Shown in pieces: positions 2,761 through 36,870 of a DNA stretch of 36,870 bases. The position numbers and the translations under genes are program-made. The notes beneath the pieces were generated by a model that was not told where the DNA came from, searched no databases, and saw nothing but the letters and a program-made list of their open reading frames with translations. The stretch comes from Geminicoccaceae bacterium (GTDB lineage Bacteria; Pseudomonadota; Alphaproteobacteria; Geminicoccales; Geminicoccaceae): the NCBI GenBank assembly GCA_007694015.1, contig RECO01000094.1, forward strand, positions 1 to 36,870, in the 5' to 3' direction. How positions within the stretch are numbered: position 1 is the first letter of the stretch; each line of letters opens with the position of its first letter.

Positions 2761-3953
2761 GCGCGGAGCGCGGCGACGCCGGGCAACTCCTTGCCCTCCA
2801 GCCATTCGAGGAAGGCGCCACCCGCGGTCGAAACGTAGGAGAAGCGTTCCAGAACGCCGGCCTTCGCCAGCGCCGCCACCGTGTCGCCGCCGCCGGCGAC
2901 CGTTTTGAGCTTGCCGGCATCGGTAAGGTCGGCGGCGGCCAGCGCCACACCGGTGGTGCCGGCATCGAACGGGTCGAGCTCGAAAGCGCCCATCGGACCG
3001 TTCCAGAGCAGCGTCTTGCAACCGGCCAGCGCCGTCTCGACCGCTTTGACCGTCGCCGGGCCGACATCGACGATCATCTCGTCGGCCGCCACCTCCTCTG
3101 GCGCCACGACGCGATTGTCCGCCTGGGCTTCGAAGGTGGTCACGACGACCGCGTCCTCCGGCAACAGGATGCGGCAGCCCTTGGCCTCGGCGTCGGCCAG
3201 GATGGCGCGGGCGGTGTCGGCCAAGTCTTTCTCGCACAGCGACTTGCCGACCGGCTTGCCCTGGGCGTGCAAAAAGGTGTTGGCCATGCCGCCACCAATG
3301 ATCAAGAGGTCGACCTTGGCGACGAGATTGCCGAGCACGTCGAGCTTACTCGATACCTTGGCGCCGCCAATCACGGCAGCAACCGGCCGCTCCGGGACCT
3401 CCAATGCGGCCTGCAGCGCTTCGAGTTCGGCCTGCATCAAGCGGCCGACATAGGTGGGCAGCCGCGAGGCGACACCGGTAATCGAGGCGTGGGCCCGGTG
3501 CGAGCAGGAAAAGGCGTCGTTGACGTAGAGGTCGGCGAGCTTGGCGAGACCGTCCGCGAAGGCCGGGTCGTCCTTCTCTTCGCCGGCATGAAAGCGCAGG
3601 TTTTCCAACAGCACGAGGTCGCCATGTGCCGCTTTGGCCACGGCCGCATCGGCGACGGCGCCGATGCAGTCATCGGCGAAGTGGACCTTGCGGCCGGGCA
3701 GTGCCCGCTCCAACGGTGCCACGATGGGACGGAGCGACATCGAGCTTTCGACCTTGCCCTTGGGCCGGCCGAAATGCGAAGCGACGACGACGACGGCACC
3801 GGCTGCAGCCAGTTCTTCCAGGGTCTCGGCGGCGCGTTCGATGCGGGTGGCGTCCGTCACTTCGCCTGCGGCCATGGGCACGTTGAAGTCGACTCGGACG
3901 AGCACGCGCTTACCGCGTGCGTCGATGTCGTCGAGCGTTTTGAACGCCGGCAT
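2757..3953 (-). CDS. pgk: Phosphoglycerate kinase
   Basis: A 398-residue cytosolic kinase that interconverts 1,3-bisphosphoglycerate + ADP and 3-phosphoglycerate + ATP. The N-terminal domain carries the signature [12 protein letters not shown] near residue 20 and SHFGRPKGK. The hinge and C-domain carry [34 protein letters not shown] and the nucleotide loop GGGDT near the end. Length and motifs are complete. A strong GGGAGGAAG site lies upstream of the ATG. There is no gap (GAPDH) gene beside it here; the upstream gene on this strand is an unrelated hypothetical protein. Confidence 0.98.
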
Positions 3954-6806: not shown

Positions 6807-6843
6807 GAGAAAAGCGCGCCGTGGTCCGGGATGGTGGAGCCAC

Positions 6844-6897
6844 TAGTGCACAGGCGCATTCGGAGCGTTCCGCTCCGGATGCGCCGTTGATGCACTA
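6844..6897. repeat. Hairpin repeat element A
   Basis: The outer inverted repeat is TAGTGCA / TGCACTA. The inner 15-bp stem is GGCGCATTCGGAGCG paired with CGCTCCGGATGCGCC, with one T/G wobble and a 3-base loop. It shares TAGTGCACAGGCGCA with element C at 36828 and its overall plan with element B at 6910. It is a REP/MITE-like intergenic palindrome between bpt and a small hypothetical gene. Confidence 0.75.
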
Positions 6898-6909
6898 ACT
6901 CCATGGAAT

Positions 6910-6962
6910 CGTGCAGCTTTGGCGCAGTCGGACGTGATTCGTCCGACTGCGCCGCTGCACTA
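6910..6962. repeat. Hairpin repeat element B
   Basis: A perfect 14-bp stem (GGCGCAGTCGGACG / CGTCCGACTGCGCC) has a 5-base loop, TGATT. It is flanked by GTGCAG and CTGCAC, which continue the pairing, and ends TGCACTA like element A. The arms match element A in plan but not base for base, with compensating changes that keep the stem paired. Confidence 0.75.
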
Positions 6963-7017
6963 GCAGACGGGCCGCGTGGAGGGGAGGAAACCTGGAGCGG
7001 CGTAGGGGGCGAGGCGC

Positions 7018-34118: not shown

Positions 34119-34232
34119 GACCATCCCGCGCCCCCGCCCGCCGGGGTCCCCACGCTGCTTTGCAGCGCGGGGTGGCCGGCCACCCATGGCATCGTGCACT
34201 CGTGGTTGGCCGGGCGGGGGTGAGGGATGGTC
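34119..34232. repeat. 114-bp multi-branched foldback element
   Basis: The outer arms GACCATCCC...CCCCCGCCCG (34119 on) pair with CGGGCGGGGG...GGGATGGTC (ending 34232). Inside are CGCTGC-TTT-GCAGCG with CCCC/GGGG extensions and a second partial stem around GGCCGGCCAC / GTGGTTGGCC. The whole would fold like a cloverleaf on either strand. It lies 3' of the scsB-like gene and 5' of the diguanylate cyclase gene, both on the minus strand. It could be a structured RNA, a terminator complex or a foldback repeat. Confidence 0.55.
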
Positions 34233-34243
34233 CGTGCGCTACC

Positions 34244-34275
34244 TAACCGGGAAACGCTCTAACCGGGAAACGCTC
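34244..34275. repeat. 16-bp tandem duplication at the scsB-like stop codon
   Basis: TAACCGGGAAACGCTC occurs twice back to back (34244-34259 and 34260-34275). The second copy ends at the last base of the scsB-like stop codon. It looks like a small slippage duplication. Confidence 0.7.
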
Positions 34276-36371
34276 TAGCCGGCGGCGGCGTTGCGGAGCG
34301 CGGTGCGGACGAGGCTCGGCGTCAGGACCTGGGGCAGCACCTGCGCCGGCGCGCCGTTCGCGCCATAGACCACGTAGAGCGGGACCCCCGGATGGTCGTA
34401 GCGGCGGAGATAGTCGGCGATCACGGCGTCGCGGTTGGTCCAGTCACCGACGAAATAGGTGATGCCGTGCTCGGTCAGCAGCCGCTCGAAGTCGCGGCCG
34501 GACAGGGCGACGCGCTCGTTCACCTGGCAGGTGATGCACCAGGCCGCCGTCAGATGCACGAAGACGGGCTCGCCGGCGGCACGGGCTTCGGCCAAGCGCT
34601 CGGGATCGAAGCGTTCGCCGAGCGTGAGCGGCTCCGCCTCGCCGGTCGCGGCGGTCACGGGCAGGCTGGTGGCCGGCACGGTCAGGAGTGCGAGCGCCAC
34701 CACCCCGGCCACCGCCCCGCCGAGCCGTGCCGTTCGGCTGGCACCGCCGAGCGCCGGTGCGGCGAGCCAGAGGCCGAAGGCGAGCAGGACGGCGCCGACC
34801 AGCACGGCCAGCACCGCATCGGGGCCGGCCTGCTGCGCCAGCACCCAGACGAGCCATGCCGCCGAGGCGTACATCGGAAAGGCGAGGCCCTGGCGCAGCC
34901 GCGTCATCCACGGGCCCGGACGCGGCAGGCGGCGGCCCATGCCCGGCACCCAGGTCACCAGCAAGAAAGGCAAGGCGAGACCGACACCGAGCGCCAGGAA
35001 GACCGCGAGGGTGACGTGGGCCGGCTGGGTCAGGGCGAAGCCCAGGGCCGCCGCCATGAAGGGTGCCGTGCAGGGGGTGGCGACGACCACCGCCAAGAGG
35101 CCGGTGGCGAAGGCCCCGAGCCCGTCAGGGCGCGCTGCGACGCTGCCGCCCACGTTCGGCGTCAGGTTGAGGGCGAACAACCCCGAAAGGTTGAGGCCCA
35201 CGACGAACAGGACATAGGCGAGGAGCGCCACCACCACGGGCGATTGCAGCTGGAAGCCCCAGCCGATCTGGGCGCCGCCGGCGCGGAGCGCGATCAACGC
35301 CCCGGCGACGGCCGCGAAGGTGACGAGCACGCCCGCGAGATAGAGGAGGCCGTGGCGCCGGAGCGTCGCCCGGTCGCTGCCGCCGACTTCGACCAGCGCC
35401 AACGCCTTCATCGACAGGACGGGGAAGACGCACGGCATCAGGTTCAACAAGACCCCGCCGGCCAGCGCCAACAGCACGGCGGCCAAGAGGCCGAGACCCG
35501 CCCCGCCCCGCAGCGCGCCTTCGGCCCAGCCGGGGGCGCTCGCCAGCATGGGCAGGTCGACGATCAGCGCCTGCTCGAAGTGCTGCGGCCCCAGGGCTTC
35601 GGTCAGGACCAGCACGCCTTCGAGCCGCTCGGCGGGCGGGGCTCGCCCCGGCGGCAGGTGCAGGACGAGGCCGTCGGCGCGGACCTCCCAGGGCTGGGCT
35701 GCGGGATGGTTCAGCCGGCCGGATTCGGCCGGGAAGAACCGGACGTCCTGCAAGAGTGCCGGATCGAAGTGGCCTTCGATCGTGAGTTGCAAGGGCTCCG
35801 GACCGCTCGCCGTCAAGTCGAAGGGCGAGGGCTGGGGCAGGCGCGCCTTGAAGCGGTCGAACAGGGCGAGTGTCGCAGGATCGGCCAGGGTTTCGGGGCC
35901 GGTCGCAAGGCTGAGCCCGACGGTGCCGCTCTCCGGGATGCAGATGTCGGCGCAGACCAGCCAGAGCGCATCGGCTTCGAGCGGGACGGGCTCGCCGAGC
36001 GGCCAGTCGGCCGGCACGCTCACCTCGACCAGGTGCAACACCTCGCCGTAATAGCCGAAGTTCATCAAGGGCCCGTAGGGCACCGCCTCGGGCAAGGGCC
36101 ACTGGATCGGCCCCGCCACCACGCCCGGCAAAAGCTGCCAATCCAGATTGGTCGCAGCCCCACTGTCGCCAGGATTTTTCCAATAGGTGTGCCAGCCCGG
36201 AATGATGTCCAAATGCAGGCCGACCCAAACGGTGTCGCCGGGCGCTACCGTCGCCACCTCACTGACCAGGCTCGCCTTGACCCGTTCGGTCTGGACCACC
36301 TGCGCCTCGGCGCCGGCCCAACCCGAGAGGACCAAGAAGGCCCCCGCCACCCATCGCATGATACTCGTCAT
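34275..36371 (-). CDS. ScsB/DsbD-type thiol:disulfide interchange protein
   Basis: A 698-residue inner-membrane reductase that carries electrons from cytosolic thioredoxin to periplasmic thiol proteins. The ATG at 36371 is chosen (a second ATG at 36359 is possible); a signal sequence follows (VAGAFLVLSGWAGAEA). The N-terminal periplasmic domain has the cysteine pair LVCADIC (140, 144), a CxxxC as in ScsB rather than the wider-spaced E. coli DsbD pair. The membrane domain (about eight helices, 290-575) carries LMPCVFPVLS (Cys314) and VVATPCTAPF (Cys434). The C-terminal thioredoxin domain has AAWCITC (612, 615). No scsC or ccm partner is nearby. The upstream region is filled with repeats. Confidence 0.92.
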   Translation of the reverse strand: MTSIMRWVAGAFLVLSGWAGAEAQVVQTERVKASLVSEVATVAPGDTVWVGLHLDIIPGWHTYWKNPGDSGAATNLDWQLLPGVVAGPIQWPLPEAVPYGPLMNFGYYGEVLHLVEVSVPADWPLGEPVPLEADALWLVCADICIPESGTVGLSLATGPETLADPATLALFDRFKARLPQPSPFDLTASGPEPLQLTIEGHFDPALLQDVRFFPAESGRLNHPAAQPWEVRADGLVLHLPPGRAPPAERLEGVLVLTEALGPQHFEQALIVDLPMLASAPGWAEGALRGGAGLGLLAAVLLALAGGVLLNLMPCVFPVLSMKALALVEVGGSDRATLRRHGLLYLAGVLVTFAAVAGALIALRAGGAQIGWGFQLQSPVVVALLAYVLFVVGLNLSGLFALNLTPNVGGSVAARPDGLGAFATGLLAVVVATPCTAPFMAAALGFALTQPAHVTLAVFLALGVGLALPFLLVTWVPGMGRRLPRPGPWMTRLRQGLAFPMYASAAWLVWVLAQQAGPDAVLAVLVGAVLLAFGLWLAAPALGGASRTARLGGAVAGVVALALLTVPATSLPVTAATGEAEPLTLGERFDPERLAEARAAGEPVFVHLTAAWCITCQVNERVALSGRDFERLLTEHGITYFVGDWTNRDAVIADYLRRYDHPGVPLYVVYGANGAPAQVLPQVLTPSLVRTALRNAAAG

Positions 36372-36440
36372 GAGGGTCAGATACGCCCCACACCCCGAAG
36401 CGCAAGGCGCGCCTTGGTCGCTCATGGGCGCGGGAAGCCA

Positions 36441-36487
36441 GGGAAGGGAAGGAAGGGTAGGGAAGGGAAGGAAGGGAAGGAAGAAGG
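36441..36487 (+). repeat. Polypurine tract with multiple GGG runs (G-quadruplex candidate)
   Basis: 47 bases are purine apart from one T. GGG runs separated by AA, AAGGAA and TA give a textbook G3-loop pattern on the plus strand. The mirror-like purine strand could also form a triplex. It lies 70-116 bp upstream of the scsB-like ATG, on the non-transcribed side of its 5' region. Confidence 0.7.
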
Positions 36488-36523
36488 CAAGGGGGGACTT
36501 GATGGTCCCCCCTTGGACCCCCC
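36484..36523. repeat. 40-bp block, inverted copy of 165-204
   Basis: Exact reverse complement of 165-204, including the perfect hairpin AAGGGGGGA / TCCCCCCTT. Here it joins the polypurine tract to the foldback element. Confidence 0.75.
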
Positions 36524-36827
36524 CAGGCAGCGGCTTTGCCGCTGCCAATGGAAAGGGGAGACGGCGGCTTTGCCGCTGCCAATGGAAAGGGGAGACGGCG
36601 GCTTTGCCGCTGCCAATGGAAAGGGGAGACGGCGGCTTTGCCGCTGCCAATGGAAAGGGGAGACGGCGGCTTTGCCGCTGCCAATGGAAAGGGGAGACGG
36701 CGGCTTTGCCGCTGCCAATGGAAAGGGGAGACGGCGGCTTTGCCGCTGCCAATGGAAAGGGGAGACGGCGGCGGGGCTGCAGCTCAACTCGACAATTGGC
36801 GGCGGCGTAGCCGTCGCTCGGGGGTCC
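36515..36827. repeat. Foldback element with an internal tandem array
   Basis: The left arm begins GGACCCCCCC AGGCAGCGGC and the right arm ends GCCGTCGCTCGGGGGTCC, an imperfect reverse complement of the left. The arms match those of the 76-bp foldback at 98-173. Between them lies the 7 x 34-bp array. Its unit starts with the inner arm sequence (GCGGCTTTGCCGC), so the array seems to have grown from one arm. Confidence 0.55.
36530..36767. repeat. Tandem array, seven perfect 34-bp units
   Basis: The unit begins GCGGCTTTGCCGCTGCCAAT and ends GGGGAGACG; copies start every 34 bases from 36530 to 36734 with no differences seen. Each contains a small hairpin GCGGC-TTT-GCCGC. The period is not a multiple of three and the unit lacks stop codons, so all frames appear open without coding. 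Perfect identity suggests recent expansion or ongoing length change. Confidence 0.92.
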
Positions 36828-36870
36828 TAGTGCACAGGCGCAATCGGAGCGTTCGGCTCCGATTGCGCCG
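36828..36870. repeat. Hairpin repeat element C (cut by window edge)
   Basis: It starts TAGTGCACAGGCGCA like element A at 6844. It continues with a perfect 14-bp stem GGCGCAATCGGAGC / GCTCCGATTGCGCC and loop GTTCG. The closing TGCACTA arm would lie beyond the window. It abuts the foldback element at 36827 directly. Confidence 0.75.

What the first reader, a model, noticed from the sequence alone, without database searches (positions are those of the whole stretch)
36515..36827. Foldback element whose arm appears to have expanded into seven perfect 34-bp repeats
The outer arms match a simple 76-bp foldback at 98-173, but here a 7 x 34-bp perfect array sits between them. The unit is made from the inner arm sequence plus a short purine-rich piece (GAAAGGGGAGACG). 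This suggests replication slippage or foldback-driven amplification of a palindromic repeat, next to the scsB-like promoter region where length changes could affect expression.
Basis: seen in the sequence. Interest (0 to 1): 0.6.

Follow-up and report, generated by a model that had tools for sequence, protein, structure and literature searches.

The report
Tandem hairpin minisatellite in dispersed palindrome
A real array of seven identical 34-bp hairpin units sits inside one member of a large, apparently undescribed family of folded intergenic repeats found only in this uncultured alphaproteobacterium; shorter arrays of the same unit sit in at least fourteen other members, so it is an unusually long case of local repeat expansion rather than a one-off.

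Summary
A 34-bp unit is repeated 7.1 times at 100% identity (36530-36772) between inverted arms. It sits in one of roughly 250-300 related intergenic elements in this 3.8-Mb Geminicoccaceae-like MAG. Each element has one or two GC-hairpin "caps" (A or B), a C-run/G-run basal stem and a palindromic body. Cap A occurs 59 times and cap B about 350 times here. Cap A was absent from 40 relatives and 384 class genomes; cap B gave one single-mismatch hit in 31 family genomes.

The unit is a body hairpin plus a purine-rich linker, but that module recurs at 15 loci (up to 4 hairpins elsewhere, spacing about 31-35 bp). Units are 91-96% alike within a locus and 72% between loci, which fits local amplification by hairpin-assisted slippage. 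No RAYT/IS200 transposase domain was found.

The right cap is missing because a second repeat, a 121-bp CTAG-flanked MITE-like element, starts at 36827 and the contig ends inside it. "Seven" is not secure: contigs broken in a sister array overlap by exactly 55 bp, so a longer array had to be resolved by the assembler. An effect on scsB is unproven; a terminator-like hairpin lies between array and gene.

The parts
36530..36772 (+). Tandem array: 7 perfect copies of GCGGCTTTGCCGCTGCCAATGGAAAGGGGAGACG plus 5 nt (GCGGC)
   Evidence: Tandem Repeats Finder, 100% matches; units listed
36526..36546 (+). First, complete body hairpin (GGCAGCGGC-TTT-GCCGCTGCC); later copies keep only the inner stem
   Evidence: sequence; fold
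36486..36515 (+). Cap hairpin A (AAGGGGGGAC-TTGATG-GTCCCCCCTT and flanks), one of 59 genome copies
36432..36485 (+). Purine tract next to cap A (GGAAGG-like simple repeats); reads as a pyrimidine tract towards scsB
36515..36523 (+). Left half of basal stem (GGACCCCCC)
36820..36827 (+). Right half of basal stem (GGGGGTCC)
36798..36818 (+). Right body hairpin (about GGCGGCGGCGTAGCCGTCGCT), matching the ordinary A-B elements
   Evidence: comparison with copies listed (e.g. L021) and the alignment
36827..36870 (+). Left part of a CTAG-flanked 121-bp MITE-like element inserted at the right stem/cap junction; cut off by the contig end
79..202 (-).
34275..36371 (-). Neighbouring gene: ScsB/DsbD-like protein with a signal-peptide-like start; not part of the element

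Best explanation
The array is a local minisatellite expansion of a standing 'hairpin + purine linker' module inside one copy of a lineage-specific family of composite palindromic intergenic elements. Elements with two or more neighbouring, near-identical short GC hairpins give the replication machinery repeated chances to stall on one hairpin and re-pair at the next, adding or removing one unit. At this locus the process has produced about seven identical units. Shown: the family, its architecture, the module at 15 loci, homogeneity within loci against divergence between loci, and array ends in hairpin sequence. Inferred: slippage as the mechanism and its being recent. Whether the whole elements spread as passengers or are kept as 3'-end or terminator-like structures is not settled; the outward hairpin-plus-pyrimidine-tract layout and the bias of single caps to gene 3' ends favour a transcription-end role, at moderate confidence.
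For: 100% identical tandem units. The same module, consensus about GCGGCnnnGCCGCTGCCAGTTGnnRGGRGAGAC, at 15 loci with spacing of about 31-35 bp (one interval at C302 is 29); within-locus identity 0.963 (0.91 without this locus), between-locus 0.716; linkers alone 0.646 between loci against 0.446 when shuffled. This array begins and ends in GCGGC, leaving a 5-bp direct repeat 34 bp apart in the presumed single-unit ancestor; several other arrays overhang by most of a hairpin. Caps: A 59 copies, 0 in 40 relatives and 0 in 384 class genomes; B about 350 copies, one single-mismatch hit in 31 family genomes. Stem flanks of the caps change on both sides in a compensatory way (CAG..CTG, GAG..CTC, TAG..CTA, GAC/GTC to GAT/ATC). 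Single caps face a gene 3' end 42 times against 13 (p = 1e-4). The 21 nt outside caps are 36-39% T and 43-48% C, against 16% T in the background. Cap B's exact hairpin occurs in 68 IMG/VR contigs, mostly with a T-rich 3' side like intrinsic terminators.
Against: No second strain or read set was available, so length variation was not observed. The copy number depends on the assembler. Amplification by another enzyme or by unequal recombination would leave similar tandem sequence. Gene strands come from a home-made codon model, not an annotation.
Confidence: 0.72

Rival explanations
1. The array is a selected protein-binding or supercoil-regulating array, like gyrase-binding BIME-2 in E. coli, with units added because more copies bind better.
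For: Unit spacing is narrow across loci (31-35 bp, about three helical turns) and the linker is partly conserved between loci (0.646 against 0.446 shuffled). BIME-2 are tandem units that bind gyrase (PMC2817692).
Against: Most elements have no array (tandem units in 12 of 165 caps scanned); linker sequence differs between loci; no shared gene context among arrays.
Confidence: 0.13
2. Transposase-driven amplification, as proposed for RAYTs making BIMEs by rolling-circle copying between palindromes.
For: Dispersed palindromes plus tandem modules are what the RAYT/BIME model describes (PMC2817692).
Against: No Y1_Tnp (PF01797) domain in the genome, while control genomes gave hits. Units are direct repeats of one hairpin, not alternating inverted REPs.
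Confidence: 0.06
3. The array is real but seven is an assembler's estimate; the true number may be smaller, larger or mixed in the population. (Compatible with the best explanation.)
For: C42 and C79 break inside a sister array with an exact 55-bp overlap; C158, C162, C168 and C214 also end in hairpin-unit sequence; this 243-bp array is the only long one assembled through.
Against: The contig does continue on both sides of the array, so paired or longer reads may have spanned it.
Confidence: 0.45
4. The array encodes a repetitive N-terminal extension of ScsB, or a separate repeat peptide.
For: The minus-strand reading frame runs open from 36752 through the array into scsB.
Against: The opposite strand is open across the array too; 34 is not a multiple of 3, so each unit shifts the frame; ScsB has a signal-peptide-like start at 36371, and homologues match from residue 1-34 of that start onwards.
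Confidence: 0.02

Closest known systems
BIME-2 / REP clusters of E. coli and Stenotrophomonas (RAYT-associated)
   Same: Dispersed intergenic palindromes; some members hold tandem modules; linkers differ between loci; palindromy kept by compensatory changes (PMC2817692)
   Different: Units here are direct repeats of one hairpin, not alternating inverted REPs; no Y1_Tnp/RAYT domain found; different sequence and cap architecture
PIT / TM_ECO potential intrastrand triplex elements of E. coli (PMC4666352)
   Same: Each cap is a G-run/C-run hairpin with a further C-run (or G-run) alongside, in the block order needed for an intrastrand triplex; pairs in inverted configuration, often of two types
Minisatellites / VNTRs (e.g. 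MIRU-VNTR of mycobacteria; general knowledge)
   Same: Intergenic tandem repeat of tens of bp, homogeneous within a locus, with similar units at several loci
   Different: Each unit carries a GC hairpin and the array is enclosed in a larger foldback; length variation not yet observed
REPIN-type and IS-derived MITEs
   Same: The 121-bp CTAG-flanked element that interrupts the right end looks like one
   Different: The cap-bounded family has variable body length, no target-site duplication noticed and no constant ends beyond the cap

Membership tests
REP/BIME (RAYT-associated) | Dispersed extragenic palindromes in high copy (>100 per genome) | tested here: met
   cap A 59 and cap B about 350 copies; caps facing a gene 3' end lie mostly 15-100 nt from it
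REP/BIME (RAYT-associated) | Cognate RAYT (Y1_Tnp) in the genome | tested here: not met
   PF01797 search: 0 matches, controls positive; genome 93% complete
REP/BIME (RAYT-associated) | Tandem modules made of alternating inverted REPs | tested here: not met
   units are direct repeats of one hairpin plus linker
REP/BIME (RAYT-associated) | GTAG or CGTC tag beside the palindrome | not tested
   no systematic tag search made; the tag classes are known from PMC3733652 (title and abstract only)
PIT / TM_ECO | Consensus CCCTCNCCC-N3-6-GGGNGAGGG-N3-GGGNGAGGG | tested here: not met
   0 matches in 316 kb of own-genome DNA
PIT / TM_ECO | Three consecutive blocks able to form an intrastrand triplex, stem 6-15, loops 1-6 | tested here: inconclusive
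   block order G-C-C / G-G-C present in each cap, but G/C runs are 5-7 long and hairpin loops 7-10; the same C-run can pair with the opposite G-run instead
Minisatellite / VNTR | Head-to-tail repeats of 10-100 bp, homogeneous within the locus | tested here: met
Minisatellite / VNTR | Copy number varies between strains or cells | not testable with these tools
   no second genome carrying the locus, no reads
CRISPR array | Repeats separated by unique spacers | tested here: not met
   the whole 34-bp period is identical in all copies
Known structured RNA (Rfam) | Match above the gathering score | tested here: not met
   no match in the window

The most novel reading that the evidence does not exclude
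A lineage-specific family of a few hundred capped foldback elements, spread by something other than a RAYT, whose bodies hold an intrinsically unstable hairpin module, so that dozens of intergenic regions carry independently expanding arrays acting as tunable transcription-end or supercoil elements.
Probability: 0.2. Interest if true: 0.6.

Novelty: new variant of a known kind. Interest (0 to 1): 0.38.

Why it matters
It adds a family of composite palindromic repeats in a poorly sampled alphaproteobacterial group, without the RAYT usually invoked. It also gives a natural series (1, 2, 3, 4, about 7 units of one module at 15 loci) in which hairpin-linked repeat expansion can be followed. Such arrays break short-read assemblies, so they are likely under-counted in metagenomes.

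Tried and rejected
CRISPR (no spacers) and known RNA families (no Rfam match). Coding repeat (both strands open across the array, period not a multiple of 3, signal-peptide-like start downstream). RAYT origin (no Y1_Tnp). E. coli PIT membership (consensus absent). Plasmid origin was tested with the simple element at 60-215, phage origin with the array element: no match. Exact cap A in GTDB contigs and its core in IMG/VR: none. A rule that A caps must pair with B caps: AB 30, BB 21, AA 2, but A loci were over-sampled, so it was not tested further. Orthologous site: the 60%-identical Geminicoccaceae homologue has a short upstream gap and an oppositely oriented reading frame, with no such repeat seen on reading it, but it is too distant to serve as an empty-site control.

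Full report
Observation. The window is contig C12 of a 3.81-Mb, 322-contig genome. The 34-bp array is real in the assembled sequence: seven perfect units plus 5 nt, 36530-36772, between arms that pair. The region folds far better than its shuffles (z = -6.6).

Context. The array sits in one copy of a dispersed family. Cap A (AAGGGGGGACTTGATGGTCCCCCCTT) has 59 copies at up to 2 mismatches in this genome and none in 40 relatives; its core was also absent from 384 other genomes of the class. Cap B (AGGGGGCCAAAAGCCCCCT) has 351 copies at up to 2 mismatches against 1 for the reversed control; a 17-base version gave one single-mismatch hit in 31 other family genomes. In the sampled loci, 165 caps make 54 two-capped elements and 57 single caps, which extrapolates to about 250-300 elements in the genome; that is an estimate, from a sample that over-represents cap A. 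The host is placed near Geminicoccaceae only by its closest scsB homologue (60% identity).

Architecture. Typical A-B elements are about 115 bp: purine tract, cap A, CCCCCC, palindromic body, GGGGG(G), cap B, pyrimidine tract. The alignment of 20 supports cap A, a basal stem and cap B as three helices, with both-sided changes in the cap flanks; the G and C runs themselves never vary and so say nothing. Bodies differ: two hairpins around ACTTT/AAAGT in most, one long unrelated hairpin in some. The family is therefore mosaic.

The module. At 15 loci the body holds two or more short hairpins (GCGGCnnnGCCGC) joined by TGCCA-GTTG-purine linkers, mostly 31-35 bp apart; 13 of them have three or more hairpins, counting C42/C79 as one locus. 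Units agree within loci (0.963; 0.91 without this array) and less between loci (0.716). Linkers are more alike between loci than shuffled linkers (0.646 against 0.446), so the module is probably shared by descent or copying, and each locus has then been made uniform locally. This array is framed by GCGGC at both ends, a 5-bp direct repeat one period (34 bp) apart in the presumed single-unit ancestor, which is what slippage would need.

Right end. The element's right cap should follow GGGGGTCCTAG at 36820-36830. Instead, a second repeat begins with CTAGTGCA at 36827. That repeat is a 121-bp element with CTAG at both ends: 11 listed copies, the one at 6843-6963 included, are identical, a 93% subfamily exists, and 73-77% relatives occur in two family genomes. 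In other loci it sits in the CTAG of cap B or its junction, so the window's array element most likely has a second element nested in its right junction, and the contig ends inside that.

Copy number. C42 and C79 stop in a sister array and overlap by exactly 55 bp, as expected from an assembly graph with k = 55; this is one instance. A 243-bp array of 34-bp units cannot be read through at that k without extra information, so seven is provisional.

Function. Read outwards, each cap is a GC hairpin followed by a pyrimidine tract (36-39% T, background 16%), and cap B's exact hairpin occurs, mostly with T-rich tails, in 68 viral contigs. Single caps prefer gene 3' ends 42 to 13, and convergent over divergent neighbours 15 to 1, by a home-made codon model. 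This favours a transcription-end role, though the T-runs are short and the comparable E. coli PIT motif showed no terminator activity, as reported in PMC4666352.

Known kinds. REP/BIME and PIT/TM_ECO are the nearest. The first fails on RAYT and on alternating orientation, the second on sequence, with loop length against it too; both remain good guides to how such elements behave. Overall this is a new variant of a known kind, of moderate interest.

Noticed in passing
window 6843-6963 and 36827-36870; about 25 full-length copies genome-wide: A 121-bp MITE-like element flanked by CTAG on both sides, with 11 listed copies identical over all 121 bp, a 93% subfamily, 53-bp short forms, and 73-77% relatives in two other family genomes. 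It often lands in the CTAG of cap B. No transposase for it was sought.
   Followed up: partly
L231 (C32) near 3300, L228 (C17) near 1650, L245 (C64) contig end: Some bodies or contig ends hold long pure C or G runs (about 14 to 24 nt), suggesting unstable homopolymers or assembly errors.
   Followed up: no
window 34217-34282; also ends of contigs C217 (L006) and C44 (L238): The stretch GGGATGG(T/C)CCGTGCGCTACCTAACCGGGAAACGCT, with its 16-bp unit repeated 2.5 times in the window, recurs at other contigs, so another repeat family is likely present.
   Followed up: no
IMG/VR loci L075-L142: The exact 19-nt hairpin AGGGGGCCAAAAGCCCCCT recurs in 68 viral contigs as a probable intrinsic terminator, many with similar flanking text, pointing to a few related phage groups.
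   Followed up: partly
L027, L044, L245, L260 and L006 beside caps: Several bodies continue into an AT-richer stretch with GTTCGTTTTG-like text (e.g. GACAGTTCGTTTTGTA, CTGGGTTCGTTTTGACTGGCG), which looks like another shared repeat.
   Followed up: no
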